From a virus, in the IMG/VR virus record IMGVR_UViG_3300017765_000001, positions 46,338-110,337 of that record: a stretch of DNA of 64,000 nucleotides. One strand, 5' to 3'. A program made the position numbers and the translations under genes. Positions 7,211-60,076 of the stretch are shown one piece after another; the stretch's first letter is position 1, and each line of letters begins with the position of its first letter. The notes under the pieces are model-generated. The model did no database searches. It worked only from the letters and a program-made list of their open reading frames with translations, and was not told where the DNA came from.

Positions 7211-7868
7211 AGGTTTGAAGCTTAAATTCAACAAACTCTCTAATGTATTCTGAGAGTAAGTTGATATACTTTCTCTTGTCGTATTGTTCATAAACTACAC
7301 ATTCTCCATTTTCACAAGACATTATGATGACAAACTTCTTCACCATTATACCAGTCATTTCATATAACATGCAAGCATATGCTGCACATTGTACATAATA
7401 GTGCTCAATCCACTTTTCAGGTTTTGGTTTCTTACTAGTCTTAAAATCAATCACAGCAAGTTCACCCTCATATTCAGCAATGCAATCAACTGTTCCAGCA
7501 ACACCCAATTCTTTGCTAAAGAGTGCTTGCTCAATAGCATGAATGTTATCTATCTTGTCTAGATCAGATTTAGCTTGTAGAAAGAGAAATTGCGATAGTG
7601 GTTGGACTTCAGGTAATTTAATATTGCGAAGATGGCACTCAGCAAGAGTATGCATGTCAGTGCCCCTGCTTGTGGATTGCTTTGTGATCTTGTTTGCTTC
7701 TACATTACCTACCCTTGCTCTCCATTCTCTGAAGATCTCTCTGTTGTAATGACTAATGATAGATGTAATAGAAACAAGTTTATTTCCATCTGGAGTGTCA
7801 TAGTATCTAACACCATCAATCATCTCCCTATCTAATTTAGGGTAATCAATCTCAATATGTTTGAACAT
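7203..7868 (-). CDS. RecB-type PD-(D/E)xK exonuclease
   Basis: A 221-residue nuclease. Motifs in order are GTVDCIAEYEGELAVIDFKTSK (about residues 121-142, with catalytic D, D and K) and QCAAYACML (about 155), the RecB-family QxxxY motif. No four-cysteine iron-sulfur cluster is present, so it is not a typical Cas4 or AddB. Cyanophages usually carry such a gene near uvsY/gp33, probably for host DNA breakdown or recombination. It overlaps phoH by one base (stop/start). Confidence 0.8.
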   Translation of the reverse strand: MFKHIEIDYPKLDREMIDGVRYYDTPDGNKLVSITSIISHYNREIFREWRARVGNVEANKITKQSTSRGTDMHTLAECHLRNIKLPEVQPLSQFLFLQAKSDLDKIDNIHAIEQALFSKELGVAGTVDCIAEYEGELAVIDFKTSKKPKPEKWIEHYYVQCAAYACMLYEMTGIMVKKFVIIMSCENGECVVYEQYDKRKYINLLSEYIREFVEFKLQTYA

Positions 7869-8638
7869 TAGAGTCCTAATTCAAGTTTTGTTGTTATGTA
7901 CTCTTTGACAAATCCACTTCTGCAGATATCTTCAGCTTGGAATTCAATGACATCAAAGGATGGCATGTTCTTCAAGATACGCATGAAATCAATGATGCCA
8001 TTCTTCTCACTCATCTTAATAAGGTCAGTCTGTGTTGCATCACCACAGAACATGATCTTTGAACCTTCACCTACTCTGGTGATGATAGAGTCCAATTCAT
8101 GGAAATTCAAATTCTGAAACTCATCAACAATCAAAATTGAATTATCAAAGGTTGTACCTCTAATATATGATGTGCTCCAGAAACTAATAGTTCCCTGTGC
8201 CTTAAGATTATTGTAAAGCATATCAAAAGATGAGTCATCAGGCATCTCAAACATATACTTTACCATATTCTTATATGGAATTTGATAGATGTCTGATTTG
8301 TCCTCATGATCACCAGGCAGGAATCCAATCTCTCTGGTAGGCACCAAAGATCTCACAATATAGATTTTCTCATACTGAGTGTTAACATTCAATACATCCT
8401 GAAGTGCATTATATAAGGTAATGAATGTCTTGCCTGTGCCTGCACACCCATAGGCAACCATATTTTGGTTCTTCTTGTATGAATTAAAGAAAATCTCCTG
8501 GTTGTCAGTCAGTGGTTCAATTTTCTTGGCATAATCAAGATTAATTGGTTTCTTTCGCTTCATTTGTCTATTACTCATTCCAAATGGGACTGGATTGGTG
8601 CTACCAATACCTGAAGACTTTCCTCTACTCTTGGGCAT
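7868..8638 (-). CDS. phoH: PhoH-like P-loop ATPase
   Basis: A 256-residue ATPase with Walker A GCAGTGKTF near residue 63 and Walker B ILIVDEFQNL near residue 168. PhoH is very widespread in marine phages. Its name comes from the phosphate-starvation regulon of E. coli, but the phage function (perhaps RNA metabolism) is unsettled. The basic N-terminus (MPKSRGKSSG ... RQMKRKKPINL) is typical for phage versions. No Pho box is evident upstream. Confidence 0.93.
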   Translation of the reverse strand: MPKSRGKSSGIGSTNPVPFGMSNRQMKRKKPINLDYAKKIEPLTDNQEIFFNSYKKNQNMVAYGCAGTGKTFITLYNALQDVLNVNTQYEKIYIVRSLVPTREIGFLPGDHEDKSDIYQIPYKNMVKYMFEMPDDSSFDMLYNNLKAQGTISFWSTSYIRGTTFDNSILIVDEFQNLNFHELDSIITRVGEGSKIMFCGDATQTDLIKMSEKNGIIDFMRILKNMPSFDVIEFQAEDICRSGFVKEYITTKLELGL

Positions 8639-8647
8639 AAACTCTAA

Positions 8648-8890
8648 TTAAACAGGATTAACATTTGAACCTGGCATCTTGGATACCTTATGAAGAACAT
8701 CATTCCAACCTGGATGTGACTTCTTCAGTTTATCATATGTCTCCCCTACTTCTCCCACGCCAGCACATCCAGCTGACCAATCTTTATCCCAATCAGGATT
8801 TTCATCTCTCCACTCACTATATTTAATCATAGTCATATGGAGAGTTTGTGTCTCTCCTGTCTTCATATTTTTCACTGGATATGTTGGCAT
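8648..8890 (-). CDS. Small conserved cyanophage protein, FmdB-like start
   Basis: 80 residues starting MPTYPVKNMKTGETQTL, which resembles the beginning of FmdB-type zinc-ribbon proteins, but the paired cysteines are missing (only one Cys), so no zinc ribbon can form. Tryptophan-rich middle (EWRDENPDWDKDW). Preceded by a good GAGG ribosome site and an AATAAATA box (8911-8918) that could be a weak late promoter. Function unknown, possibly virion-associated. Confidence 0.7.
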   Translation of the reverse strand: MPTYPVKNMKTGETQTLHMTMIKYSEWRDENPDWDKDWSAGCAGVGEVGETYDKLKKSHPGWNDVLHKVSKMPGSNVNPV

Positions 8891-8916
8891 ATCAACCTCA
8901 ATTGTATGTATATTTA

Positions 8917-9552
8917 TTAAACCCAGTCAAGGGCACCCCCAATGATGGGAAATTGTTCAGTAAAGAGTCTCTTACACTCATTGGCAATGTCCATATGTTC
9001 TTTCTGAGTTCCATTGGCAGATCTCAGATCAATATAGTGAATCCATGAACGAACAGATCCAGTCATGTACATTCTAGTTGGAGTTGCTAATGGTAAGACC
9101 ATACGAGCACACTCCTTTGCTACACCTCTTTCAAGCATCTGTTGATACAGTGCCATAGAAGAGTCAAACAGAGTCTGCATCTGGAGTTCCAGATTTTGTT
9201 TAACAAATGGGTCAAGATCATCAGTGGAATTCTGACGATTCTTAGTGTCCTGACGTCTCAATTCTGGAAGAGGAATCTTATCCATCAACAAAGATGAATC
9301 AGCATACCTTTGTGAAAATTCTTGATATGTGAAGCTCCTATGACGTAGCACTTGAGCCGCAATTGCTCTTGATGTTTCTATCTCAAGAGTCATGTATGCC
9401 TGTTCAAAGATGCTCCAATGCTTGTGCTTGATGCAATACTTGATAAGACCCTCAAAGGAATCATTGCCCTGGTTAGTGGGGTTACTGACCCTTGCACAGT
9501 AAGCAATGTGCTTCTCTGCATCGGGGGTGACTGATAGTAGTGTTACTTTCAT
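8917..9552 (-). CDS. thyX: Flavin-dependent thymidylate synthase ThyX
   Basis: 211 residues, the usual ThyX length. It makes dTMP from dUMP using methylene-tetrahydrofolate, FAD and NADPH. The signature RHRSFTYQEFSQRY (about residues 69-82) covers the RHR-x7-S motif that binds FAD and dUMP. A second conserved region (GSVRSWIHYIDLR) lies near the C-terminus. Belongs with nrdAB and glutaredoxin to the dNTP supply of the phage and would consume NADPH made by Zwf/Gnd. Its start overlaps the next small gene by 4 nt. Confidence 0.95.
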   Translation of the reverse strand: MKVTLLSVTPDAEKHIAYCARVSNPTNQGNDSFEGLIKYCIKHKHWSIFEQAYMTLEIETSRAIAAQVLRHRSFTYQEFSQRYADSSLLMDKIPLPELRRQDTKNRQNSTDDLDPFVKQNLELQMQTLFDSSMALYQQMLERGVAKECARMVLPLATPTRMYMTGSVRSWIHYIDLRSANGTQKEHMDIANECKRLFTEQFPIIGGALDWV

Positions 9553-10176: not shown

Positions 10177-10330
10177 AAAAAACTTTCCAATCAGATATGC
10201 CATGTGATTTAAGAAAAATCCATTTAGCATATGATACACCACGATATGTCAAAAGTCTAAAAACTTTTTCTGGATCATGGGTCTCTGGATTGTACTCTGG
10301 AAGATCATAACAAAATTTGATCTTCAGCAT
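10175..10330 (-). CDS. 51-aa protein ending in the terminator
   Basis: A short gene starting MLKIKFCYDLPEYNPETHD and ending SDWKVF. A GAGGGA ribosome site lies 8 nt before the ATG at 10330. The TAG stop is inside the stem of the downstream terminator/promoter element, which is very economical. The context (small genes with their own ribosome sites behind an early promoter) suggests a host-takeover type protein. No family recognised. Confidence 0.65.
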   Translation of the reverse strand: MLKIKFCYDLPEYNPETHDPEKVFRLLTYRGVSYAKWIFLKSHGISDWKVF

Positions 10331-10340
10331 TTGTCATCCC

Positions 10341-10436
10341 TCAGATTTTTTTTAGAAGGAGTATTTCACCATACCATAATGACATTGTCGCAAAACAAGC
10401 AAGAGTGGTGACTGCTGTGAGTTGTAGTGCTCCCAT
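10341..10436 (-). CDS. 31-aa putative membrane peptide
   Basis: A tiny frame, MGALQLTAVTTLACFATMSL and then WYGEILLLKKI, with one hydrophobic helix (residues 2-20) and a positively charged C-terminus, so a possible single-pass membrane peptide. GAGG precedes the ATG by 6 nt. It sits 10 nt upstream of the 51-aa gene in the same direction. Its very small size keeps confidence moderate. Confidence 0.5.
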   Translation of the reverse strand: MGALQLTAVTTLACFATMSLWYGEILLLKKI

Positions 10437-10443
10437 AATTACC

Positions 10444-10608
10444 TCATTTGGTATAGGTACGACCACGATAGCAGAAGGTGCCATGAGGCTCCTGTCCTGC
10501 CTTACGAACTTCACACTTTACACCACGATATGCAGTGTGAGTGATTCGTGCGTCATGCAGAGCTGCTGCCTTGTTAATTTGCTTCTTAATGATTGTAAGT
10601 GTGTTCAT
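10444..10608 (-). CDS. DUF4278-like small protein
   Basis: 54 residues starting MNTLTIIKKQINKAA. The C-terminal half HTAYRGVKCEV ... GTFCYRGRTYTK has the paired YRG motifs of DUF4278, a short domain common in cyanobacteria, so host origin is likely. AGGAGAA lies 6 nt before the ATG at 10608. The frame open further to 10701 is ignored because it would overlap the upstream 53-aa gene. Function unknown. Confidence 0.75.
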   Translation of the reverse strand: MNTLTIIKKQINKAAALHDARITHTAYRGVKCEVRKAGQEPHGTFCYRGRTYTK

Positions 10609-10648
10609 TGATTTCTCCTGAAAGTAAGGGGTTTTTAATCCCGTTCCT

Positions 10649-10810
10649 TCAGTCGTTTGCGTCCCATCTACACTCAGAAGTATAGTCCTGAATGGTTTCA
10701 ATTAATTCTAACTTCCACTCTGCTTTCAGATTCTCATGCTTTTGGATCCTAAGGACCATAGCATCAGCATCTGAACATGTAATGGTTGATGAAAGAAAAA
10801 ATTCAAACAT
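10649..10810 (-). CDS. 53-aa host-like protein
   Basis: Starts MFEFFLSSTITCSDADAMVL and ends TSECRWDAND, a short soluble protein resembling small proteins I recall from cyanobacteria and cyanophages (SSTITCS... and ...ECxWDAND motifs). It is the first gene after the strong early promoter at 10891-10919, so it is probably expressed right after infection. A GGAG ribosome site lies in a GC-rich leader. Function unknown. Confidence 0.75.
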   Translation of the reverse strand: MFEFFLSSTITCSDADAMVLRIQKHENLKAEWKLELIETIQDYTSECRWDAND

Positions 10811-10890
10811 GGGATGAACGCTCCGTTCCGCGACTTACTTGCGTCCTGAGACTGAATTTTACTTCTGACTCTTGGATGAACGATGGTCTT

Positions 10891-10919
10891 ATTATAGACC
10901 TCATGACTTATATAGTCAA
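10891..10919 (-). promoter_or_regulatory. Strong sigma-70-type early promoter
   Basis: TTGACT (10919-10914), a 17-bp spacer and a perfect TATAAT (10896-10891) on the minus strand. Start of transcription would be near 10884, leaving a leader of about 74 nt before the 53-aa gene. This layout would be read by unmodified host RNA polymerase, so the downstream run of small genes fits an early operon. Confidence 0.75.
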
Positions 10920-10954
10920 GTTTGTATGTAACTTGTGATACAATTTTACTATTT

Positions 10955-11209
10955 CTACAGAATTATACCTTTGTCTCTAAAAAAGTGTAGCAAATCCTTC
11001 AAACCACCCACATGTCTTGACCCATCACTATCAATTGTAATCTGAGGATACTCTGCCTTCTCTCCAAACTCGGACTTGAATCCAATCTCTGAGAAGTCTT
11101 GGCCTACATGATAGACACTAATATCATGACCACTAAACTGGACACTTTTCAGCAGACTCTCTGCTCTCTCACACTCTTGATTGTCATTTGAGTAAATGAT
11201 TGCTCTCAT
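10955..11209 (-). CDS. Thioredoxin-fold / glutaredoxin-like protein without CxxC
   Basis: 84 residues, MRAIIYSNDNQECERAESLL at the start and EYPQITIDSDGSRHVGGLKDLL later, which follows the glutaredoxin order (active site, then a TVPxxxxxxxxVGG-like segment). Only one cysteine remains where CxxC is expected, so it could at most work by a monothiol mechanism. A typical dithiol glutaredoxin is encoded at 13.7-14.0 kb. Start overlaps the upstream stop (TAATG). Confidence 0.65.
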   Translation of the reverse strand: MRAIIYSNDNQECERAESLLKSVQFSGHDISVYHVGQDFSEIGFKSEFGEKAEYPQITIDSDGSRHVGGLKDLLHFFRDKGIIL

Positions 11210-11523
11210 TAGTCTCTCTGTCTCCAATCGTCTGGTTTGTCCTGTTTAAACCAATCAAGAATTTCATCTGCCCCATCAAATCCATTCTTGTGATTAGATG
11301 GATCAGGATCTCCTAGTCCCATCTTATTCAAAAAGTCATCAGTGCTGCCCTCCTCAATTTCTGAAGTAGACTGACGTCTTGCTTTATTTAACCAATCTCT
11401 TGCAGTTGTGTGTGCCTTTGCTAATTTCTCTACCCAGATCATGTCTTCTAGGGGAACATTCTCTTTATTAGCAATGAGCCTACAAATAGACTCTAAACGA
11501 AGTCTGTATGCAGTAGAAAGCAT
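11209..11523 (-). CDS. Conserved cyanophage protein (MLSTAYRLRLE family)
   Basis: 104 residues starting MLSTAYRLRLESICRLIANK, a conserved protein of T4-like cyanophages as I recall it. The N-terminal two thirds are helical and charged, the C-terminal third is Asp/Gly-rich (ADEILDWFKQDKPDDW). No domain assignment is possible from sequence. It lies in the operon between speD and the glutaredoxin-like gene. Confidence 0.78.
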   Translation of the reverse strand: MLSTAYRLRLESICRLIANKENVPLEDMIWVEKLAKAHTTARDWLNKARRQSTSEIEEGSTDDFLNKMGLGDPDPSNHKNGFDGADEILDWFKQDKPDDWRQRD

Positions 11524-23811: not shown

Positions 23812-23887
23812 GATATCTGCCAGGCCAAGTTAATTGCATTCCAGCAGTTAACAATCCAATAAAGACAAACACAAATAACAAGTTCAT
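23804..23887 (-). CDS. 27-aa membrane peptide
   Basis: MNLLFVFVFIGLLTAGMQLT then WPGRYRG: one hydrophobic helix plus a basic tail. The ATG overlaps the zwf stop (ATGA, 23887-23884) and its own stop overlaps the next gene by 8 nt. Such coupling on both sides argues for a real gene despite the size. Length and topology are like small photosystem subunits, but no identity is claimed. Confidence 0.58.
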   Translation of the reverse strand: MNLLFVFVFIGLLTAGMQLTWPGRYRG

Positions 23888-25257
23888 GCTGGATAATCCC
23901 AATTGGTTATGATATTTGTTTTATGCACTGGACCCCATTGCCCCTCCTTGTAAATATAAGGTGCTGTTCTGATTGGACACTTATCACCTACACATAATAA
24001 ATCATCAACAATTCTCCAAGATTCCAAAACCTCTTCAGAATGAACAAAATGGGATTGATCATTATGGAGAGCATCAAATAAAAGTTTTTCATAACCATCA
24101 ACACCCAACCAATCAGGATATCGATGAGTCAGAGTTGCAGTTTCAACATCATTCTTAAATCCAGGTGCCTTCATATCAATTCTGATATCAAAGTGTGGAT
24201 GTGGTTGGAGACGCATTACGATACGATCATTATATTCATGTCCATCAAACAGTTGTTGAGGAGGTGCCTTAAGTTTAACCACAACTTCAACACATTGATA
24301 TGGCATTTTCTTTCCACTCATGAAGTGAAAAGGAACTCCCTCCCAACGCCAGTTATCAATATATAAGTCACCAGCAATATAGGTAGCAGTGTCACTGAAA
24401 GAATCAACACCGTCTTCAGATTTATAAGATTCATATTGACCAAAAATAACTTTGTGTCCTAGTCTAGTCGCTGCAAGAACTTTTGTCTTCTCTCTACGAA
24501 TCTCAGTAGCATTCATTTTACATGGTGCTTCCATGGCAATCAGTGCAAGAACCTGAAGCATGTGATTCTGAAGCATGTCTCTGACAACACCAGATCCATC
24601 ATAGTATTGTGAACGACCTTCACAACCAATTGTTTCAGTTGCAAAGATCTGAACCTCTTCTATGTACTGGCGATTCCAAAGTGGTTCAAGTAATGTATTG
24701 CTAAAACGAGTGGCAAGGATATTATTAACAGTATCTTTACCAAGATAATGATCAATCCGATATACTTGTTTTTCGCGTAAATGTCTATCCACCACTGACT
24801 GTAAATTATCAGCAGATTTATAATCGTACCCAAAGGGTTTTTCAATAACCACACGCGATCTTTCTGGGTCATCTAAGAATCCTGCTGACTTAAGATGAGT
24901 AATTGCACTAGCATAAGTGTTTGGTGGTACAGATAAGAAATATGTGGTGTCAGCACTCTGATCATGCAGTTTCATCAGACTTTCTTCACATTCCAAATCA
25001 CAAGATACAAAATCCAACCAATGACAAAAATCTTGTGGATATTCACCCAAATGACGTAACCATTCATCTCTAGAAATTTCTCTACGAGAAGAACCAACAA
25101 TTAATAACCCTGGAGGAAGCAGATTTTTTTTCCACAACTCATAGAGTGCAGGAATCAGTTTTCTTTTACAAAGATCTCCAGCAGCACCAAAGATAACTAT
25201 GTGTTTACTAATGTGCTGTTCCATTTCCATCATACTTGTCTGTGTCATAGTAGTCAT
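23884..25257 (-). CDS. zwf: Glucose-6-phosphate dehydrogenase
   Basis: 457 residues from the ATG at 25257, which has AGGTG just upstream. A GTG at 25329 overlapping the gnd stop would add 24 residues and cannot be excluded. Motifs: GAAGDLCKRKLIPALYEL (NADP site, near residue 23) and RIDHYLGK (substrate and catalytic Lys/His, near residue 175). First step of the oxidative pentose-phosphate pathway, making NADPH. With gnd and talC it redirects host carbon flow during infection. Confidence 0.96.
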   Translation of the reverse strand: MTTMTQTSMMEMEQHISKHIVIFGAAGDLCKRKLIPALYELWKKNLLPPGLLIVGSSRREISRDEWLRHLGEYPQDFCHWLDFVSCDLECEESLMKLHDQSADTTYFLSVPPNTYASAITHLKSAGFLDDPERSRVVIEKPFGYDYKSADNLQSVVDRHLREKQVYRIDHYLGKDTVNNILATRFSNTLLEPLWNRQYIEEVQIFATETIGCEGRSQYYDGSGVVRDMLQNHMLQVLALIAMEAPCKMNATEIRREKTKVLAATRLGHKVIFGQYESYKSEDGVDSFSDTATYIAGDLYIDNWRWEGVPFHFMSGKKMPYQCVEVVVKLKAPPQQLFDGHEYNDRIVMRLQPHPHFDIRIDMKAPGFKNDVETATLTHRYPDWLGVDGYEKLLFDALHNDQSHFVHSEEVLESWRIVDDLLCVGDKCPIRTAPYIYKEGQWGPVHKTNIITNWDYPA

Positions 25258-25325
25258 TTTCACCTTTTCGTAACCCGAAATATACTGTGGATAGTACAAA
25301 GGGTAAAGCAATCCATTTAAGTATC

Positions 25326-26390
25326 TCACCTAACATGATGTCCCCCAAACATGTATCGCATTCCGTTTAAGATTTTATTTCCAAATTCTCCAAGTCTCCT
25401 TGAATTGAATCTTTCAAATAAAGCAGCAGATATAACTGGAGTTGGTACACCAAGATCTACAGCAGCATGAAGAGTCCAACGACCTTCACCAGAGTCTGAT
25501 ACCCCTCCATCAAATTTACTAAGATCATGATCATGTCTTAATACATCAGCAGTAAGATCAAGCAACCAACTGCCCACAACAGAACCACGACGCCAAAGCT
25601 CAGCTACTTCAGCACAGTCAATATCATATTCATAATCCTTTGGATTTTCCATTGGAGCCACCTCAGCATCACCTTCCTTGGTGTAGTTGGAACCAAGATT
25701 GCCATGATGCAAGATATTGAATCCCTCAGCATATGCCTGCATTATACCATATTCTACACCATTGTGAACCATTTTCACAAAGTGACCTGCTCCAGGACCC
25801 CCACAGTGAAGCCAACCATATTCAGCACTGGATGCTCTTGTATATGCATCTGTGCGAGGTGCAGCGGTGATACCTAGTGCAAGTGCCCTGAAAATGGGGG
25901 CACATGTAGATACTGCTGTATTTGCACCACCAACCATGAGACAGTATCCACGCTCCAGACCATAAACTCCACCACTAGTACCACAGTCAATATATTGGAT
26001 GCCCAACTTTGCCAGGTATTCTGCCCTTCTGCGAGAATCTTTAAAGTTGCTATTGCCATGATCAATAACAATATCCCCACTGCTAAGTAATGGTAGTAAC
26101 TCATTAAGTGTGTCCTCTACAAGTTCTGCTGGAATGACAAGTTGGAAGATGCCAGGTTGCTCAACATAAATTGTCTCACCAGATTTTTCCCCATAGACAC
26201 TCTCTGCTTTTTTTACTACTTGAACAAGGCTTTCCAGAGAAGTGGCAACTCCACTGACATAACCTGCTTCATACGCCTCTTGAGCTTTTTCATAGTTCCT
26301 CCTATATCCCCATGTTTCTATTCCTGCCTTCATCATACGACGAGACATACCCTCGCCCATACGACCAAGACCAATAATACCCACTTTCAT
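25326..26390 (-). CDS. gnd: 6-phosphogluconate dehydrogenase (decarboxylating)
   Basis: 354 residues, shorter than the classic 468-aa enzyme and more like the short, YqeC-type GND. NAD(P)-binding GLGRMGEGM at the N-terminus, DHGNSNFKDS (about 111-120), CGTSGGVYGLERGYC (about 136-150) and HNGVEYGIMQ (about 208-217) in order. It produces ribulose-5-phosphate, CO2 and reducing power. A GGGAG ribosome site lies about 8 nt before the ATG. Upstream of zwf in one operon. Confidence 0.95.
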   Translation of the reverse strand: MKVGIIGLGRMGEGMSRRMMKAGIETWGYRRNYEKAQEAYEAGYVSGVATSLESLVQVVKKAESVYGEKSGETIYVEQPGIFQLVIPAELVEDTLNELLPLLSSGDIVIDHGNSNFKDSRRRAEYLAKLGIQYIDCGTSGGVYGLERGYCLMVGGANTAVSTCAPIFRALALGITAAPRTDAYTRASSAEYGWLHCGGPGAGHFVKMVHNGVEYGIMQAYAEGFNILHHGNLGSNYTKEGDAEVAPMENPKDYEYDIDCAEVAELWRRGSVVGSWLLDLTADVLRHDHDLSKFDGGVSDSGEGRWTLHAAVDLGVPTPVISAALFERFNSRRLGEFGNKILNGMRYMFGGHHVR

Positions 26391-31155: not shown

Positions 31156-31946
31156 ATCACCTCCCAATGATCTGGATACAAGTCTTTAGTATTTAAGTGT
31201 GCATTATTAGGACCAAACCATTTCTTTGGTGCGATCACTCTTCCTCTGTTTGCTAACCATGCTCCCCACCAACTGAATGAACTGTTGGCTATAATAAAAT
31301 CATTACACTGTGTCATCATGTATAGGTCATGATATGAATCTGCCTGTTCTGAAATAATAAAACTATCTTCAGAGAATAGATCTTGTTCCATACACCAGGC
31401 AGGATCATCACTGAAGATAATAACTTGTCTACCTTTCTCAAATTTACTGAGTGCATCAGCATAGTATTCAAGACTTTGGTTATGATGATTTCCAGAGTTT
31501 GTGAGAAAATCACCTCTTCTGATGTGAAGGGAAATAGGATTATCAAAGTAATTATCAATGATATTCTTACATTCGTCAACTATGTGTTGTTTGAATGTAA
31601 ACTCTTTTCTGACTTTATCTTGGATATGAATAAAGTATTTTTCTGTTTGATAGAATCCATGGAGTGTGAAATCATCATTTTTGATATCAAAAACACTATC
31701 ATCAAATTCAAATCCAGATTGTTGATATACCTTTCCACTGTTGATGAAACCAATGTTAGGTTTGATATTGAAACAATCAAAGAGTTCTATGTGTAGTTTG
31801 TTTCCAATACCATCATCAAAGATCTCATCATGTTTGGGTATCTTAAATCCCACTCCAATTTTATCTGCTATACCCATGGTAGCAGCATATTGAAACATTT
31901 GGTTTCCCAACTGTCCCAACTTTCCAAGGTAATCAAATCCTATCAT
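31152..31946 (-). CDS. Glycosyltransferase family 11 (alpha-1,2-fucosyltransferase-like)
   Basis: 264 residues. GT11 signature set complete: GKLGQLGNQMFQYAA at the N-terminus, SLHIRRGDF (about 141-149, GDP-sugar binding HxRRGD) and NSSFSWWGAWLA (about 221-232). Uses GDP-L-fucose in known members; no fucose synthesis genes are seen in this window, so donor supply would come from the host or outside the window. Overlaps both neighbours by 4 nt. Confidence 0.88.
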   Translation of the reverse strand: MIGFDYLGKLGQLGNQMFQYAATMGIADKIGVGFKIPKHDEIFDDGIGNKLHIELFDCFNIKPNIGFINSGKVYQQSGFEFDDSVFDIKNDDFTLHGFYQTEKYFIHIQDKVRKEFTFKQHIVDECKNIIDNYFDNPISLHIRRGDFLTNSGNHHNQSLEYYADALSKFEKGRQVIIFSDDPAWCMEQDLFSEDSFIISEQADSYHDLYMMTQCNDFIIANSSFSWWGAWLANRGRVIAPKKWFGPNNAHLNTKDLYPDHWEVI

Positions 31947-32836
31947 TGTTTCTTAATCCAATCAAGAACATCAATCTCAGGCATCCACCCCAAGACATTT
32001 GCTATCTTACTTATGTTAGCAAATGTCATATCCATTTCACCTGACCTTTTAGGAATGTATGTTTGATTATCAGAAATTGCATCAGCAATACTTTGAACAG
32101 AGACACACTTACCACTACCCACATTGAATACCTCACCAGCATGTCCTTTGAGTGGCATGGTAGATGCAAGATAGTTTGCCCTTGCTACATCCTTGACATG
32201 AATAAAATCCCTCTTCTGTGATCCATCTCCAACAATGGTCAGTGGTTCACCAGCATCTTTCTGTCTCTGGAAAATACCTATCACAGGAGCATATTGACCC
32301 CTTGTGGGGGATCTATCGCCATACACATTGAAGTATCTCAGAACAACTGTCTCAAGACCATAGAGGTTGGTGTACATCTTACAAAACTTCTCTGCTGCTA
32401 TCTTTGATGCAGAGTAAGGATTCAAGCAATCATCAGGTTGAGTTTCAACATTGGGAACAGAATTATTTCCATAACCAGATGAAGTGGAGGAGTAGATAAA
32501 TCTTTCAACACCTGCCTCTCTTGCACACTGAAGAACAGTGGCTGTGCCTACACAGTTCCTGTGTACTGCTTGAATGGGATTTTCAATTGCTGGTTGAAGT
32601 CTTGACTCTGCAGCAAGGTGATATACATGCTTTACATTCATAAAGCAATTTCTTAACTCTTTATAGTTGCATATATCAACCTTAATATTAATTACCCTAT
32701 CACTATCACTCCAATAAAACTTATCATTATTAGCACTTTCATTGTCAACACAAATTACTCTCTCTCCTTTACTGATTAAATAATCTACAAGGTTAGATCC
32801 AATAAATCCAGATCCACCAGTAACAAGGCTATACAT
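31943..32836 (-). CDS. NAD-dependent sugar epimerase/dehydratase (GalE-like)
   Basis: 297 residues. Extended SDR: TGGSGFIGSNL at the N-terminus, SSTSSGYG (about 115-122) and YSASK (catalytic Tyr-xxx-Lys, about 141-145), GDGSQKRDFIHVKDVA later. Probably a UDP-hexose 4-epimerase or similar enzyme making sugar nucleotides for the transferases around it. The ATG at 32836 overlaps the upstream stop (TGATG). Confidence 0.85.
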   Translation of the reverse strand: MYSLVTGGSGFIGSNLVDYLISKGERVICVDNESANNDKFYWSDSDRVINIKVDICNYKELRNCFMNVKHVYHLAAESRLQPAIENPIQAVHRNCVGTATVLQCAREAGVERFIYSSTSSGYGNNSVPNVETQPDDCLNPYSASKIAAEKFCKMYTNLYGLETVVLRYFNVYGDRSPTRGQYAPVIGIFQRQKDAGEPLTIVGDGSQKRDFIHVKDVARANYLASTMPLKGHAGEVFNVGSGKCVSVQSIADAISDNQTYIPKRSGEMDMTFANISKIANVLGWMPEIDVLDWIKKQ

Positions 32837-33690
32837 CACTTGATACCTCTCTTTTCCTTCATATCATTAAACACCTTAGCAATACCTTCGTCAATGGTGG
32901 TCTTGGGAAGCCACCATCCAAGAATATAATTATCAGCTTCATTTCTCTTGTCCAGTTGCACACTATCTTTAGCAATCCCTGGTATGATTTTAATTGGTTT
33001 ACTAATCAAATTAAACTGACCTTGAATAATATCTGCAATTTGTCTGATACTATTGTTGTGGAATGATGTGATATGCAGTGGGTCATCTGATTTAAAATCT
33101 GTATAACAATTCATCACAGTTTCAAGTGCCTCACAGCAATCCTCTGCATATAGGAATTGCCTTTCTTCTGTTCCATCTGTCATCATCTCAAATTCACCTT
33201 CATCAAATCCTTTATTGATAAAGTCAGTAATGACATGAGCTTTGTCCATATCATTCTCAATACCATAGACATTCCAGAACTTCACAATCAGTCCTTTCAG
33301 TGCCTTGGTGTAGAGTTCTCCAACTCTCTTGGCAACACCATAAGGGGAGTAACTCATGTTACTCATCTGGGATGATGCGAACACAAATCTCTTGTTGTAC
33401 TTCTCAAGGAGACCAAACACACTTGCCATCATCCGTGTGTTGTTATCAATGAACTTGAAGGTATGTTGATACTTCTTCAGGTATCTTGATCCACCCACAT
33501 CAAAGGCAAGGAAGAACACAAAGTCTGATTCTTTGATCAGGTGTTCAAGAGCAAGGTTTGGAATTTGTGTGAGGTCTTGAGTAGGGACACTTGCAATGTC
33601 ATACTCAAATACATGATGTCCCTTATTACTAAGATACTCAGTCAAGTAAGCACCAATCTGACCAGCAGATCCTAAAATTGTAATCTTCAT
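32836..33690 (-). CDS. NAD-dependent epimerase/reductase (SDR)
   Basis: 284 residues. ILGSAGQIGAYL nucleotide site, ASSQMSNMSYSPYGVAK with YxxxK (about 105-121), and TEERQFLYAEDCCEAL. Sits between the GalE-like gene and the HAD-nucleotidyltransferase fusion. Could act on a heptose or deoxysugar nucleotide. Specificity cannot be read. Confidence 0.8.
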   Translation of the reverse strand: MKITILGSAGQIGAYLTEYLSNKGHHVFEYDIASVPTQDLTQIPNLALEHLIKESDFVFFLAFDVGGSRYLKKYQHTFKFIDNNTRMMASVFGLLEKYNKRFVFASSQMSNMSYSPYGVAKRVGELYTKALKGLIVKFWNVYGIENDMDKAHVITDFINKGFDEGEFEMMTDGTEERQFLYAEDCCEALETVMNCYTDFKSDDPLHITSFHNNSIRQIADIIQGQFNLISKPIKIIPGIAKDSVQLDKRNEADNYILGWWLPKTTIDEGIAKVFNDMKEKRGIK

Positions 33691-34415
33691 AATGCCTCAA
33701 CGATTGAATTGTAAATCTCTTTCTTTAGTTTAGTGGTTGAATAACCATGATCCTGGCGTTTAATCCAAACTATATCTATGTCAATATCTTTACCAGTGTA
33801 AGATCCATCTTCATAATCATCACCAAGGAATCTTACATCATAATCTGAGAGATAAGAAAGAAAAGTATCCTCTGCTTGATAGACTACAACATCATCAATA
33901 TACCTTATTGATTTCAGTATTTCTTTTCTATCCTCAAGAGACTGTACAGGTATCATTTTGTGTGGACGTCCCATATTAGGATTCTCATGCAGTGCAACAG
34001 TCAGATGATTACAGTAATCCTTTGCCTCTTTGAACATCCTAATATATCCAGGGTGAATAATGTCAAATGCTCCAGCCACAATACCTTTTCTTAGTGGCAT
34101 TCTTTTTTTCCATTCTTCTACACTGATACCCTTGTCATCAATAAACAAATCAGCAGTTGGTTTATGAAACATAGGTTCAAGTTCATGATACTTGTATCCC
34201 CACATTGCCAATTGATTTCTAGTAAGGTCTGAGTGATCAATACCAGAACCTCTACCTCTTGCTGTCATGAAGATAATGTGATGTCCCTCATCATATAGAC
34301 GATTGACATGCTCCACCATCCAGGTGAATGGCAGAGCATTATAGTAATCTGGTTTTCCTAGAGAATTATTAGGAGTATGACAGAGTGTGCCATCAATATC
34401 AAAACAATATCTCAT
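33687..34415 (-). CDS. HAD phosphatase - nucleotidyltransferase fusion
   Basis: 242 residues, start at 34415 (ATGA overlap with the SIS gene). N-terminal HAD-type half: CFDIDGTLCHTP (motif I), IIFMTARGRG (motif II region), FIDDKG (motif IV). C-terminal half: GIVAGAFDIIHPGYIRMFKE, an HxGH-variant cytidylyltransferase-type nucleotide-binding motif, and LGDDYEDGSYTGKDI. Such parts match GmhB-like and HldE-C-like steps of activated-heptose synthesis, here joined in one chain. Confidence 0.82.
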   Translation of the reverse strand: MRYCFDIDGTLCHTPNNSLGKPDYYNALPFTWMVEHVNRLYDEGHHIIFMTARGRGSGIDHSDLTRNQLAMWGYKYHELEPMFHKPTADLFIDDKGISVEEWKKRMPLRKGIVAGAFDIIHPGYIRMFKEAKDYCNHLTVALHENPNMGRPHKMIPVQSLEDRKEILKSIRYIDDVVVYQAEDTFLSYLSDYDVRFLGDDYEDGSYTGKDIDIDIVWIKRQDHGYSTTKLKKEIYNSIVEAL

Positions 34416-34924
34416 ACAACACCATGTAAGAATATCTGGTGTACGCATTCTACCACACCATATGACCTGCTGGCAATATAATAATTCCAGAGTGCATTAG
34501 TAGCTTCATTTCTAATAGTATTGTCAGGACTAAATCCAGTTAACACACCATAGGGGATCTGATTGTCTTCACACCAGTCCACACATTTCAGCATGTTCTT
34601 TGACTCACCCCCTGAGCTCATGATTACAACTAGAGTATCATCCTCAACATAATACTCCAGAAATTTCTTGTATGCATAATCATAACCAAAATCATTTGTG
34701 AGCATGGTAATCATTGAAGGATCAGAGAGGATAGACACCTTCTTACTATGAAACTTCATGTAATCTTGAGAGATATGAGAAGCAACTGAATTGCTTCCAC
34801 CATTACCTAGAATAATGATTCTATTGTAGTTCTCAAATGCTTTTTGATACTTCTCAAACTCACTTTCAGTATGAGCATTTTGTAAAGCATCAACATACTC
34901 GCTAAATGGATTGTTTATAGACAT
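34412..34924 (-). CDS. SIS-domain sugar isomerase (GmhA-like)
   Basis: 170 residues. Phosphosugar-binding ILGNGGSNSVASHISQDYM (about 37-56) and VVIMSSGGESKNML (about 98-111), typical of sedoheptulose-7-phosphate isomerase and related SIS proteins. Overlaps the GHMP kinase gene by 10 nt. Its position next to a GHMP kinase and a HAD/nucleotidyltransferase supports a heptose pathway. Confidence 0.82.
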   Translation of the reverse strand: MSINNPFSEYVDALQNAHTESEFEKYQKAFENYNRIIILGNGGSNSVASHISQDYMKFHSKKVSILSDPSMITMLTNDFGYDYAYKKFLEYYVEDDTLVVIMSSGGESKNMLKCVDWCEDNQIPYGVLTGFSPDNTIRNEATNALWNYYIASRSYGVVECVHQIFLHGVV

Positions 34925-35862
34925 TTACCTTTCACTCCATTGGGTGATACATTTATTTTAACAGAATCATATGGTATATTCAAGTCATTCTTTTTAGAAA
35001 AGACCAAGAAGAATCCACCATTACCCGCCCCACATAATTTATGTGCGATGACAGTGTCACTTTCTTCAAGAGTTTTATCCATAGTTCTGATGATCTTATT
35101 TTCTGTAATATGAGATGTTGTTTTTTTCTTCTGATCCCAACTCAGATTTAATAATTCTAAAAACTCAGGATAGTTTTCATCCAGTAGTGCATCATATGCT
35201 TTCTCCACTGTCCCAATTAGAGGAACTGCCTTATCAAGATTATCTGTCACACTTTTAAGAACGCCTCTTGAATTTCTGGTGACTCCAGTAAACACAAGTG
35301 CCATATCATAATACTTGAATAAGTCAGTAGATAGAAAATCATACTTAACTATCCCACCCCTGTAGAAATCAATCTTCTTGAAACCACCAATACCACATCC
35401 ATATGGATCTTGATATCCACAATATGGATTCATCTTCAATTCAAGTTTGTATGCCAACTTGCATATCTCCACATCAGTCATGCTCAAACCATTGAACATG
35501 GATATGGCTTTAATCAAACTAATAATGTAGGATGAAGAGGATGCAAGTCCACTTCCCTGAGAATATGCATCACTAGTCATTGAGATATTCATTGGATTAC
35601 AATTAAAGTGGTCCAATACAACCCTTACAAGTTCATTCTTGATATCTTGAATGTGTTGTACCTCCTCTCTCTTTGAATAGTTGATAATATACTTACTTGA
35701 TTCAGCATTATATCCCAACTGATCCTGATGAAGAGTAATGTAAGTCTTCAAGTTTGATGTAAAACTAATGACAGATCCTTGTCCATACTTCTCAACAAAG
35801 AATGGATTATCAGTGGATCCACCAAACAAAGACACTCTAAGTGGGCAACTAGATATTAGCAT
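34915..35862 (-). CDS. GHMP sugar kinase (HddA-like)
   Basis: 315 residues. All three GHMP motifs: PLRVSLFGGSTD at the N-terminus, QGSGLASSSSYIISL (about 105-120, phosphate loop) and LCGAGNGGFFLVF (about 276-288). Closest by layout to D-glycero-D-manno-heptose-7-phosphate kinase. It would phosphorylate the C1 hydroxyl before phosphatase and nucleotidyl transfer. Overlaps the upstream gene by 14 nt. Confidence 0.83.
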   Translation of the reverse strand: MLISSCPLRVSLFGGSTDNPFFVEKYGQGSVISFTSNLKTYITLHQDQLGYNAESSKYIINYSKREEVQHIQDIKNELVRVVLDHFNCNPMNISMTSDAYSQGSGLASSSSYIISLIKAISMFNGLSMTDVEICKLAYKLELKMNPYCGYQDPYGCGIGGFKKIDFYRGGIVKYDFLSTDLFKYYDMALVFTGVTRNSRGVLKSVTDNLDKAVPLIGTVEKAYDALLDENYPEFLELLNLSWDQKKKTTSHITENKIIRTMDKTLEESDTVIAHKLCGAGNGGFFLVFSKKNDLNIPYDSVKINVSPNGVKGKCL

Positions 35863-47399: not shown

Positions 47400-47471
47400 T
47401 AGGACTGCTGGGACTTGAACCCAGATCACTCCGTTATAAGCAGAGGGCCTTTACCTTTAGGCGACAGTCCC
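47400..47471 (-). tRNA. tRNA-Ile (TAT anticodon)
   Basis: Acceptor GGGACTG/CAGTCCT, anticodon stem CTCTG/CGGAG with loop CTTATAA, T-arm CTGGG-TTCAAGT-CCCAG. Reads the AUA codon, rare in many cyanobacteria and common in this AT-rich phage. Its first 15 nt are the last codons and stop of talC. Confidence 0.85.
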
Positions 47472-48110
47472 TTGTACCTGCTTCCAATCATTCTCAAAGA
47501 TTTCCATTCCTTTATCAGTAAGGATATGATCATACATTTGCTCAAACACTTTTGGTGGCATAGTGCAAATGTGAGCACCATTATAGTATGATCTTACAAC
47601 TCTTTGAACATTTCTGATTGAAGCAGATAGGACTTGAGTTTCAATTCCTTGAACTCTATAGAGGTCTGATATAGATCTAACGACCTCCAGTCCTGCTACT
47701 GATTGATCATCCAGTCTACCCACAAAAGGAGAGACATAAGTTGCTCCTGCCTTTGCTGCCAGAATTGCTTGTGCTGCACAGAAAACAAGTGTAACATTGG
47801 TCTTGATACCTCTGTCTGCCAGATTTTTACATGCCAAGAGACCATCTCTCGTGCATGGGACTTTAATTGTTGAGCAATATCCAAACTTGTCATCAAGTCT
47901 GATGCCTTCATCAGTCATCTCTTGTGCATCACCCATGACTTCCATGCTGATATCTTCAATTCCTATCTCATCTATCTCTGCATAGACATCTTGAGGATCT
48001 CTACCACTCTTCCTAATCAGTGTGGGGTTTGTTGTCACACCATCAATCAATCCAGTCTGGAAATACTTTCTGATGACTTCTGTGTCTGCTGTATCAAGAA
48101 AAATTTTCAT
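47457..48110 (-). CDS. talC: Transaldolase TalC
   Basis: 217 residues, small TalC/Fsa-type. DGVTTNPTLIRKSGRD near the N-terminus, the Schiff-base Lys in YCSTIKVPCTRDG (about 77-89), and YVSPFVGRLDDQ (about 124-135). It completes the pentose-phosphate rearrangement that Zwf/Gnd start and is the phage counterpart of the host enzyme. The stop codon lies inside the tRNA-Ile sequence. ATGA overlap with the Phd-like gene. Confidence 0.95.
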   Translation of the reverse strand: MKIFLDTADTEVIRKYFQTGLIDGVTTNPTLIRKSGRDPQDVYAEIDEIGIEDISMEVMGDAQEMTDEGIRLDDKFGYCSTIKVPCTRDGLLACKNLADRGIKTNVTLVFCAAQAILAAKAGATYVSPFVGRLDDQSVAGLEVVRSISDLYRVQGIETQVLSASIRNVQRVVRSYYNGAHICTMPPKVFEQMYDHILTDKGMEIFENDWKQVQGTVA

Positions 48111-57933: not shown

Positions 57934-58853
57934 TACTTTGCCTTTTCACAGTTTGGATATCTCTTACCAAAGAGAATCTTGGTCTTTCTTTTGGGGTTTA
58001 CTCTATAACCAGGCCAGCACTTCTCATCAAGTTCATTCTCTTCTTTATTTGTCTTCATGATTGCACCTTTACCATACTTGTCAGTGATAGATTTTTTAAC
58101 AAAATCAAATGCTCTCTGTGATGCCTCTCTTGATTTTTGTCTTTCTGCATCAGAGATTGCAGCACTCTTTACATTCTTGGGTGGTTTTTTGTAATCTGCT
58201 CTTGCACCCATCCCACCACGCTCAAGGTGCCTATCCTTCATGGCATCAGACTCCTCTTCATTTACTGATTCAGTTTTGGTTGGTTCATCAGATTTTTGAC
58301 CAGCCTTTGATATACTTTGCTTTCTCTTCTTGGCAATCATCACATCAAGTTGTGCCTTTCTCTTTTGAAGCATTACTTCTTGAGGAGACATTGATGCATA
58401 CTCATCAAGTTCTACTTCTTCTTTCTTCAGTGGTTCAGGTTTAATGATATCAATAGTTTCAATCTCTAATGGTTTATAGTTTTCATCATAGTCAATCACC
58501 TCAAGCATTTCCACCACCGTACCACCAATTTTTTTAAACTCCTCAGACATTTCAGGATTAATCTTAATCTTATTCTTGATTTTCTTTTCTTTAATCTTGG
58601 GTTCCATATCATCTTCACCTATGACTTCAATCAGATCACTTCTCCAATTAGAAAACTTCTCTGACAATCCAAGACTCTTCTTAATCATTTGACGCTCAGC
58701 AGCACCAATACCACTACCAGCAGTTGACATATGATCATTGAAAGCTTTAATCATATTGCCACCTTCCTTTCTTGCCTTATACCTGATGGCTTTGGTAATT
58801 GATCTGACTCTTCCCTTTACTGCTTCAGGAGAATTGTCTTGCTCAGAAATCAT
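57933..58853 (-). CDS. Virion structural protein, internal type
   Basis: 306 residues, highly charged. SITKAIRYKARKEGGNMIKA at the start, a variable charged middle and a C-terminal CWPGYRVNPKRKTKILFGKR block shared by cyanomyovirus structural proteins. Likely packaged in the head or at the portal. Overlaps the next gene by 4 nt. Confidence 0.74.
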   Translation of the reverse strand: MISEQDNSPEAVKGRVRSITKAIRYKARKEGGNMIKAFNDHMSTAGSGIGAAERQMIKKSLGLSEKFSNWRSDLIEVIGEDDMEPKIKEKKIKNKIKINPEMSEEFKKIGGTVVEMLEVIDYDENYKPLEIETIDIIKPEPLKKEEVELDEYASMSPQEVMLQKRKAQLDVMIAKKRKQSISKAGQKSDEPTKTESVNEEESDAMKDRHLERGGMGARADYKKPPKNVKSAAISDAERQKSREASQRAFDFVKKSITDKYGKGAIMKTNKEENELDEKCWPGYRVNPKRKTKILFGKRYPNCEKAK

Positions 58854-60076
58854 GACGCAACTTTCTTTTTCTTATACTTATTTATGAATTTCCTACCATT
58901 TATAACACCTGTCATCCTCATGACATAATCCCTGAGTGAATCAGTACCAACCTCTCTCTGATGAGATGGTACACCAGATGGTCCAGGATAGTTTACAGTT
59001 GCTTCTGATAAATCTCTAATCCATGACTTGAACATCACATTATCTTCTGTCACACAGATAAGATAATTAGTGCCTCTTCTGATGACTTTACCTATCAAAC
59101 CAGTATTCAAATTCTCTACAAGTTGCCCCATCTTAAAGATGGCACCTGACACAAAGTTTTCTCTAAGATTTTTCCAATCAAACTTAGGAGCAATCTCCCA
59201 AAGTTCATAACCCTCAGCAACCTTCATTCTCTTTCTAATGGTTGTCATCATCAGTTTTGCTGTCTTATCATCAATATTTGAGGGTAAACCAGACACAAAG
59301 GTTTCATAATCATCCTCTGCTGCTGCCTTTCTCATCTTAGAGGCAGACATTCCCGCTACACCTTTAGCGTCTGCATCTCTTTCTCCAGCAGATACAGTCT
59401 CCACACCAGAAAAGTCATAGAGTTTGCCATTGTAGTCTCCTGACATTTTTTCAAACTCTTTGACCCTATCACCACCCACCACAATTTTAACACTTGAATA
59501 TCCATCTTGATGTGCCTGCTTCAAAACGTCAAAAATAGTCCTTGCATTTGGATCACTCACAATGCTACCAGCATGATCTGGGAACATTCTTCTCATCAAT
59601 TCTGCCTTTTCCTCTGGATCAAGAGGATTTTTCTTAGCATCTTGTGATCTTGATGGATATACTCTAAGAGTTCCATCTCCTGCTGCAGATTTTGCCTTAT
59701 CTAATAATTTTTGATGCCCTATTGTTGGTGGATTGAATCTACCAAATGTGACTGTAAGTGGACCTAAGTCTTCTTTTGGTGTGCCATCTGCCCTTGTGGG
59801 AGGTGACATTCTCCTTGGTGTACCATCAGCAAATGCACCAAACTCTGTCTCTTGTTCTGGTGGTGCTTGTTGTGTTTGTGCCTGTGGTTCCTGTTGTTGA
59901 GCAGGTTGCTTCTTAGATAGATATGATAACTTACCTCTTTCTGTTTTGGCAACAATATTACCCTGGTTGTCAAACCAGTTGCCGTGACCATCTCCAGTCA
60001 GACCAGCACGCTCTGCTTGATCTGATATTCGTGAAGTTCTTGCCTCACTACAGAAACTTAAGAACGTTCTCATCAA
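58850..60076 (-). CDS. Structural-cluster protein with a nucleotidyltransferase domain
   Basis: 408 residues. N-terminal 90 residues are Gln/Pro-rich. Then VTFGRFNPPTIGHQKLL (about 108-124, HxGH-type motif), KKNPLDPEEKAELMRRMFPD, VVGGDRVKEFEKM and GMSASKMRKAA (ISTxxxR-like), the order of NMN/pantetheine adenylyltransferases. The C-terminal 120 residues are shared by phage relatives. Could act in NAD or cofactor metabolism or be a scaffold with a borrowed fold. Confidence 0.8.
   Translation of the reverse strand: MMRTFLSFCSEARTSRISDQAERAGLTGDGHGNWFDNQGNIVAKTERGKLSYLSKKQPAQQQEPQAQTQQAPPEQETEFGAFADGTPRRMSPPTRADGTPKEDLGPLTVTFGRFNPPTIGHQKLLDKAKSAAGDGTLRVYPSRSQDAKKNPLDPEEKAELMRRMFPDHAGSIVSDPNARTIFDVLKQAHQDGYSSVKIVVGGDRVKEFEKMSGDYNGKLYDFSGVETVSAGERDADAKGVAGMSASKMRKAAAEDDYETFVSGLPSNIDDKTAKLMMTTIRKRMKVAEGYELWEIAPKFDWKNLRENFVSGAIFKMGQLVENLNTGLIGKVIRRGTNYLICVTEDNVMFKSWIRDLSEATVNYPGPSGVPSHQREVGTDSLRDYVMRMTGVINGRKFINKYKKKKVAS

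What the first reader, a model, noticed from the sequence alone, without database searches (positions are those of the whole stretch)
33687..35862. Activated-heptose-like pathway in three genes
A SIS isomerase (GmhA-like), a GHMP kinase (HddA-like) and a HAD-nucleotidyltransferase fusion lie side by side with 4-10 nt overlaps. Together they supply the four known chemical steps (isomerise, phosphorylate at C1, remove the 7-phosphate, nucleotidylate) for NDP-heptose. The pentose-phosphate genes zwf, gnd and talC elsewhere in the window could feed sedoheptulose-7-phosphate.
Basis: partly seen in the sequence, partly recalled or inferred. Interest (0 to 1): 0.62.

Follow-up and report, generated by a model that had tools for sequence, protein, structure and literature searches.

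The report
Cyanophage genes for activated heptose sugar
A marine cyanophage carries a compact gene set, shared with some Prochlorococcus cells, that very probably turns a seven-carbon sugar phosphate into an activated sugar for surface glycans, using an unusual mix of known enzyme types; the general idea was already annotated in a related phage, and the exact sugar and nucleotide remain unproven.

Summary
The three genes are real and intact on the minus strand: GHMP kinase, SIS isomerase, and a HAD-nucleotidyltransferase fusion. They are not a chance cluster. In 36 loci (30 viral, 5 Prochlorococcus-family genomes, 1 probably mislabelled MAG) the order kinase-SIS-HAD/NT-epimerase holds wherever the contig covers it, so a fourth gene (31943-32839) belongs to the set. 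The kinase is closest to HddA and keeps every residue shown to be essential in WcbL. The SIS is a divergent GmhA, with two of four zinc ligands changed (E to D, Q to E). The fusion is not GmhB plus HddC: the HAD is an EcbF-type phosphatase and the transferase is TagD/HldE-C-like with an altered signature (HPGY for HxGH). In picocyanobacterial genomes the fusion takes the place of GmhB and HddC: 10/10 classical clusters have HddC and none the fusion; 5/5 clusters of this type have the fusion and none HddC. An activated heptose is the best reading, but a pentose is not excluded: the HAD's nearest solved relative is a phage D-arabinose-1,5-diphosphate phosphatase. Heptose annotation of a relative was published in 2020. 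New variant of a known kind; product, anomer and nucleotide are untested.

The parts
34915..35862 (-). GHMP kinase, HddA-like (315 aa): proposed sugar-7-phosphate C1 kinase
   Evidence: NCBIfam HddA 91 bits (curated cut-off 600), PDB 3k85/4n3o/4usk best; WcbL-essential R13, D22, S118-120, Q162, D163 = R9, D18, S108-110, Q151, D152, all invariant
34412..34924 (-). SIS isomerase, divergent short GmhA (170 aa): proposed ketose-phosphate to aldose-phosphate isomerase
   Evidence: gmhA 51 bits (cut-off 209); 23/23 relatives match gmhA; Foldseek top hits are GmhA; zinc-ligand positions H50, D54, E159, H167
34098..34415 (-). HAD phosphatase domain (EcbF/BcbF type) of the fusion
   Evidence: 49% identical to P-SSM2 HAD and 44% to the ara-hmC-type phage HAD; PDB 9iqw 40%; D6, D8, T51, K85, D93, D94 invariant
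33687..34097 (-). TagD/HldE-C-fold nucleotidyltransferase domain of the fusion
   Evidence: TIGR01518 62 bits, rfaE_dom_II 50 bits; Foldseek TagD 1coz, HldC 5xf2; HPGY in place of HxGH, R220...STT kept
31943..32839 (-). SDR epimerase (GalE-like), conserved fourth member of the set
   Evidence: Downstream of HAD-NT in all 35 loci that reach it; STSSGYG...YSASK motif; PDB UDP-Glc 4-epimerase family
32836..33690 (-). Second SDR (weakly GDP-fucose-synthase-like), facultative member
   Evidence: Epimerase Pfam; present only in closest relatives L006, L007/L034, L008/L035
31152..31946 (-). GT11-family glycosyltransferase next to the set
   Evidence: PF01531
30334..31167 (-). GT25-family glycosyltransferase, common downstream neighbour
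   Evidence: PF01755; relative found in most of the viral loci
47457..48110 (-). talC transaldolase, possible source of sedoheptulose-7-P
   Evidence: PF00923 TAL_FSA
23884..25329 (-). zwf, pentose-phosphate feed (indirect)
   Evidence: G6PD_N/G6PD_C
25326..26390 (-). gnd, pentose-phosphate feed (indirect)
   Evidence: 6PGD

Best explanation
A four-gene sugar-activation operon shared by cyanophages and some Prochlorococcus. [quoted passage not shown] the GHMP kinase (HddA-like) phosphorylates C1, by analogy giving the alpha anomer; the HAD domain removes the 7-phosphate; the fused TagD-fold domain couples heptose-1-P to a nucleotide, possibly from CTP; the GalE-like SDR then epimerises the NDP-sugar. 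Neighbouring glycosyltransferases put it into a surface glycan (host O-antigen or virion). Shown here: the genes, their conserved order, family placement, most catalytic residues, and replacement of GmhB+HddC by the fusion. Inferred: seven carbons, anomer, nucleotide, the SDR step and the glycan target.
For: Conserved order in 36 loci. Kinase: HddA family and heptose-kinase structures best, WcbL-essential residues (PMC4691232) all invariant. SIS: GmhA best by HMM, hhalign (96.7% against 0.4% for the KpsF-type SIS of an ara-hmC-type phage) and fold. Fusion replaces GmhB+HddC in host clusters. The same HAD family sits with HldE-N/HldE-C-like proteins in P-SSM2 and is fused to canonical GmhA in two Prochlorococcus-family genomes. 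Jumbo phage LR756511 fuses the GHMP kinase to the same NT in one ORF. Caulobacter phage Cr30 also has HddA, GmhA and a TagD-like gene. Prochlorococcus genomes carry the set beside O-antigen-type genes.
Against: All family scores are far below the curated cut-offs. Two SIS zinc ligands reported as completely conserved in GmhA are changed (E68 to D, Q175 to E), and channel residue D61 is V47. The second His of the transferase HxGH signature is Tyr in the whole family. The nearest solved HAD is named a D-arabinose-1,5-diphosphate phosphatase. No substrate-length determinant was tested. HldE-C-type transferases are known for beta-heptose-1-P, while HddA is known to give the alpha anomer, so the pairing lacks a characterised precedent among the papers I could search.
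Confidence: 0.6

Rival explanations
1. The same four steps on a pentose: SIS turns ribulose-5-P into D-arabinose-5-P, the kinase makes arabinose-1,5-bisphosphate, the HAD removes the 5-phosphate, and the transferase makes NDP-D-arabinose.
For: Closest solved HAD, 9iqw, is titled phage HY126 D-arabinose 1,5-diphosphate phosphatase AfhF, 40% identical. RB69-like (ara-hmC) phages use a SIS isomerase plus this HAD (PMC6024577). zwf and gnd make ribulose-5-P.
Against: Those phages use a KpsF-type SIS and a GT-A transferase fused to a long C-terminal region, none related to the SIS, kinase or NT here. Here the SIS is GmhA-type and the kinase HddA-type. The HAD is closer to that of P-SSM2 (49%), which sits with heptose-type enzymes.
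Confidence: 0.17
2. [quoted passage not shown]
For: The transferase domain is of the TagD/HldE-C fold. In P-SSM2 relatives sit with HldE-N-like kinase and HldD-like epimerase. Virus-encoded ADP-beta-heptose enzymes are known (PMC11461863).
Against: The kinase is GHMP/HddA-type, whose characterised members make the alpha-1-phosphate (PMC10680097); no PfkB kinase is in the set. The STTR5 motif is absent (Tyr225).
Confidence: 0.13
3. The sugar nucleotide feeds DNA base hypermodification rather than a surface glycan.
For: The related HAD in T4-like phages belongs to the ara-hmC region.
Against: The set lies among GT11/GT17/GT25/GT92 and methyltransferase genes, and the same set lies on Prochlorococcus chromosomes beside O-antigen-type genes.
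Confidence: 0.05
4. The transferase or isomerase is inactive (altered HxGH and zinc ligands) and the set is decaying or has another role.
For: HPGY in place of HxGH; D and E at zinc positions; one locus (L023) has the fusion split into two frames.
Against: The altered residues are invariant at 60-97% identity across phages and hosts, and in a jumbo phage, while other active-site residues are kept, which indicates selection, not decay; SIS next to HddA in Cr30, G119 and G091 share D/E.
Confidence: 0.05

Closest known systems
[quoted passage not shown]
   Same: GmhA-type isomerase and HddA-type kinase, same four chemical steps
   Different: Phosphatase is EcbF-type HAD and transferase is TagD-fold, fused; no GmhB or HddC in the set
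ADP-L-glycero-beta-D-manno-heptose pathway (GmhA, HldE, GmhB, HldD)
   Same: Transferase fold, isomerase type, epimerase after activation
   Different: GHMP instead of PfkB kinase; epimerase is GalE-like, not HldD
Heptose genes of Synechococcus phage SynMITS9220M01 (MT408532; PMC7378029)
   Same: Orthologous set in the same order (63-76% identity), annotated in 2020 as heptose kinase, phosphoheptose isomerase and heptose epimerase
   Different: Its HAD-NT was left hypothetical; it carries an additional, more canonical HddA/HddC/Gmd cluster
P-SSM2 / S-CAM1 cyanophage HldE-like set
   Same: Same HAD family (49% identity) and TagD-like transferase
   Different: PfkB-type kinase, no SIS, no fusion, HxGH kept
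Phage D-arabinose activation for ara-hmC DNA (AfhF, RB69-like phages)
   Same: SIS isomerase and HAD bisphosphate phosphatase, same logic
   Different: KpsF-type SIS, GT-A transferase fusion, no GHMP kinase, DNA as target

Membership tests
GmhA (sedoheptulose-7-P isomerase) | Best match and fold are GmhA | tested here: met
   score below the curated cut-off
GmhA (sedoheptulose-7-P isomerase) | Zinc ligands His, Glu, Gln, His (H64, E68, Q175, H183; PMC5705639) | tested here: not met
   H50, D54, E159, H167 invariant in this family; two of four changed, same change in three HddA-linked SIS
GmhA (sedoheptulose-7-P isomerase) | Acts on sedoheptulose-7-P | not testable with these tools
   needs enzyme assay
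HddA/WcbL (heptose-7-P kinase) | Residues essential in WcbL (R13, D22, S118-120, Q162, D163) | tested here: met
   R9, D18, S108-110, Q151, D152 invariant
HddA/WcbL (heptose-7-P kinase) | NCBIfam curated cut-off (600 bits) | tested here: not met
   91 bits; a second HddA-like phage kinase scores 287, and none of the host HddA-type kinases searched passes either
GmhB (heptose-1,7-bisP phosphatase) | Homology to GmhB | tested here: not met
   hhalign probability 2% to E. coli GmhB; EcbF-type HAD instead
HddC (heptose-1-P guanylyltransferase) | GT-A type nucleotidyltransferase fold | tested here: not met
   Cytidylyltransferase-like fold
TagD/HldE-C nucleotidyltransferases | HxGH signature | tested here: not met
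   HPGY invariant; phage relatives with HxGH exist
TagD/HldE-C nucleotidyltransferases | Fold and (R)...STT motif | tested here: met
STTR5 heptose nucleotidyltransferases | Arg directly before STT | tested here: not met
   Tyr225
AfhF-type D-arabinose-1,5-bisP phosphatase | Acts on arabinose-1,5-bisP | not testable with these tools
   40% identity to 9iqw only

The most novel reading that the evidence does not exclude
Probability: 0.3. Interest if true: 0.6.

Novelty: new variant of a known kind. Interest (0 to 1): 0.42.

Why it matters
If right, this is a third way of wiring activated-heptose synthesis, moving between marine phages and Prochlorococcus. It predicts heptose in glycans of organisms related to marine Synechococcus, whose analysed LPS lacks it (PMC4515613). 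It also offers candidates for the phosphatase step reported missing from viral heptose enzymes (PMC11461863), and it shows that the label 'phosphoheptose isomerase' carried by this HAD family in many phage records is wrong.

Tried and rejected
Rejected: GmhB or HddC identity for the fusion. Rejected: KpsF/GutQ-type arabinose isomerase identity for the SIS. Rejected: L-fucokinase for the kinase (weaker match than HddA), although the QD motif and the Asp are shared with fucokinase-type GHMP kinases, so they do not prove heptose. Rejected: the idea that D/E zinc ligands are unique to this family (Cr30, G119 and G091 share them). The HAD-GmhA fusion is weaker support than it first looked, because in both genomes it sits in a NeuB cluster, not an HddA cluster. 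The predicted structures were not used for active-site geometry.

Full report
What was checked. The window is bases 46338-110337 of a 110,337-base IMG/VR virus record with T4-like cyanophage relatives. The fusion ORF has an upstream Met at 34448, but the conserved start is M12 at 34415, which gives the 4-nt ATGA overlap with the SIS gene. The chain of short overlaps continues on both sides, as in an operon (what the sequence shows).

Is it more than chance? Twenty-eight IMG/VR loci were found with the SIS, plus further loci with the kinase, SynMITS9220M01, and cellular assemblies. In 36 loci the order kinase - SIS - HAD-NT - SDR is kept wherever the contig covers it: HAD-NT and SDR downstream in 35 of 35, kinase upstream in 33 of 33. 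In several loci a methyltransferase gene is inserted between members. Glycosyltransferases around the set vary; the GT25 gene is frequent. The GalE-like SDR (31943-32839) is therefore a core member; the SDR at 32836-33690 is not.

The kinase. Best families are HddA (91 bits; fucokinase fusion 61) and the solved structures 3k85, 4n3o and WcbL 4usk; a family profile gives the heptose kinases E 1e-50 to 1e-53 against 1e-25 for fucokinase (the profile alignment also contained two other phage HddA). WcbL mutants R13A, D22A, S118-120A, Q162L and D163A lose all activity (PMC4691232); the equivalent residues are invariant here. Scores lie far below the curated cut-off, but none of the 14 picocyanobacterial genomes with an HddA-type match passes it either.

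The isomerase. All 23 family members match gmhA; hhalign gives 96.7% probability to E. coli GmhA and 0.4% to the KpsF-type SIS of an ara-hmC-type phage; the predicted model (pLDDT 86) has GmhA structures as its top hits (TM about 0.8). Two of the four zinc ligands described as completely conserved (PMC5705639) are changed: E to D54 and Q to E159; H50 and H167 are kept, in the same spacing. The same D/E pair occurs in SIS proteins adjacent to HddA in phage Cr30 and in Prochlorococcus-family genomes G119 and G091, while other HddA-linked GmhA have E/Q. The change thus marks a GmhA subgroup linked to HddA kinases; its effect on activity is unknown.

The fusion. The N-terminal domain is a HAD of the EcbF/BcbF type with the catalytic residues invariant; it is unrelated in sequence to GmhB. 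It is 49% identical to the HAD of P-SSM2, which sits beside HldE-N-like, HldE-C-like and HldD-like proteins, and 44% to the HAD of an ara-hmC-type phage. The best solved structure is 9iqw, titled D-arabinose 1,5-diphosphate phosphatase AfhF of phage HY126. The family therefore seems to remove the terminal phosphate of sugar bisphosphates of more than one length (inference). The C-terminal domain has the TagD/HldE-C fold, with HPGY in place of HxGH in every member, including jumbo phage LR756511, whereas related TagD-like phage proteins keep HxGH. An Arg at the position of TagD's RTEGISTT motif suggests CTP, but this is inference. The STTR5 motif of promiscuous heptose transferases is absent.

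Genome-context test. In 201 picocyanobacterial genomes, 14 have an HddA-type kinase. Ten classical clusters were inspected: 10/10 have an HddC-type transferase, 9/10 a GmhB, none the fusion; two even fuse HddC to GmhB. Five clusters of the type seen in this window have the fusion and none has HddC nearby; one has a GmhB about 3 kb away. Shared descent makes the p value (0.0003) indicative only. The simplest reading is that the HAD-TagD fusion displaced the GmhB and HddC functions. Independent fusions agree: LR756511 fuses the GHMP kinase to the transferase, and the HAD is fused to canonical GmhA in G119 and G007, although there in a NeuB-type cluster.

Role. The set lies among GT11, GT17, GT25, GT92 and methyltransferase genes. 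In Prochlorococcus it lies on chromosomal contigs (in one case near genes read as ilvC and cobD) beside glycosyltransferases and what reads as an undecaprenyl-phosphate sugar transferase (names by inspection of the translations), so a surface polysaccharide is the likely target. Analysed LPS of marine Synechococcus lacks heptose (PMC4515613), so the sugar would be in an O-antigen or capsule of particular strains. zwf, gnd and talC are present; their link to this operon was not tested, and talC is reported in SynMITS9220M01 as well.

Novelty. SynMITS9220M01 was described in 2020 as carrying heptose-related LPS genes, namely this kinase, isomerase and epimerase (PMC7378029), and viral ADP-heptose enzymes were reported in 2024. 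New here are the identity of the fusion, the conserved four-gene set in phages and Prochlorococcus, the replacement of GmhB+HddC, and the altered zinc and HxGH residues. I found no paper describing this combination in the library held, which lacks most subscription journals.

Verdict. An activated-heptose operon is the best explanation (0.6); a pentose version is the main rival (0.17). New variant of a known kind, interest 0.42.

Noticed in passing
L002 (MT408532) 7388-8434, 8714-9391, 10200-11237: SynMITS9220M01 carries a second, more canonical HddA with an HddC-like transferase and a Gmd-like 4,6-dehydratase beside the set described here, but only one GmhA-type SIS in the whole genome, so one isomerase may feed two pathways.
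   Followed up: partly
L004 (LR756511.1) 7986-9362: In a 595-kb jumbo phage the GHMP kinase and the TagD-like transferase are one 458-aa ORF, followed by the SDR relative and a GT11 gene; no SIS of this type found in that genome.
   Followed up: partly
L092 16379-19644 and L093 9838-11621 (G119, G007): EcbF-type HAD fused to canonical GmhA, next to NeuB (and NeuA in G119); a neighbouring CMP-transferase in G119 is also fused to such a HAD. Could be a nonulosonic-type acid pathway.
   Followed up: no
phrog_1238 and many T4-like phage records: The small HAD phosphatase is widely annotated as phosphoheptose isomerase, which it is not.
   Followed up: partly
L002 4710-5867: A GT-A nucleotidyltransferase fused to an RpiB-type isomerase.
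   Followed up: no
L120 6397-7644 and L092 3763-5016: HddC-GmhB fusions in picocyanobacteria, with the phosphatase and transferase again on one chain but from other families.
   Followed up: partly
window 58850-60076: A 408-aa ORF with a cytidylyltransferase-like domain outside the glycan region.
   Followed up: no
L051 (PBYV01000054.1): The set on a contig labelled Acidimicrobiaceae MAG; with 60-72% identity to the phage set it is probably a misbinned phage or picocyanobacterial contig.
   Followed up: no
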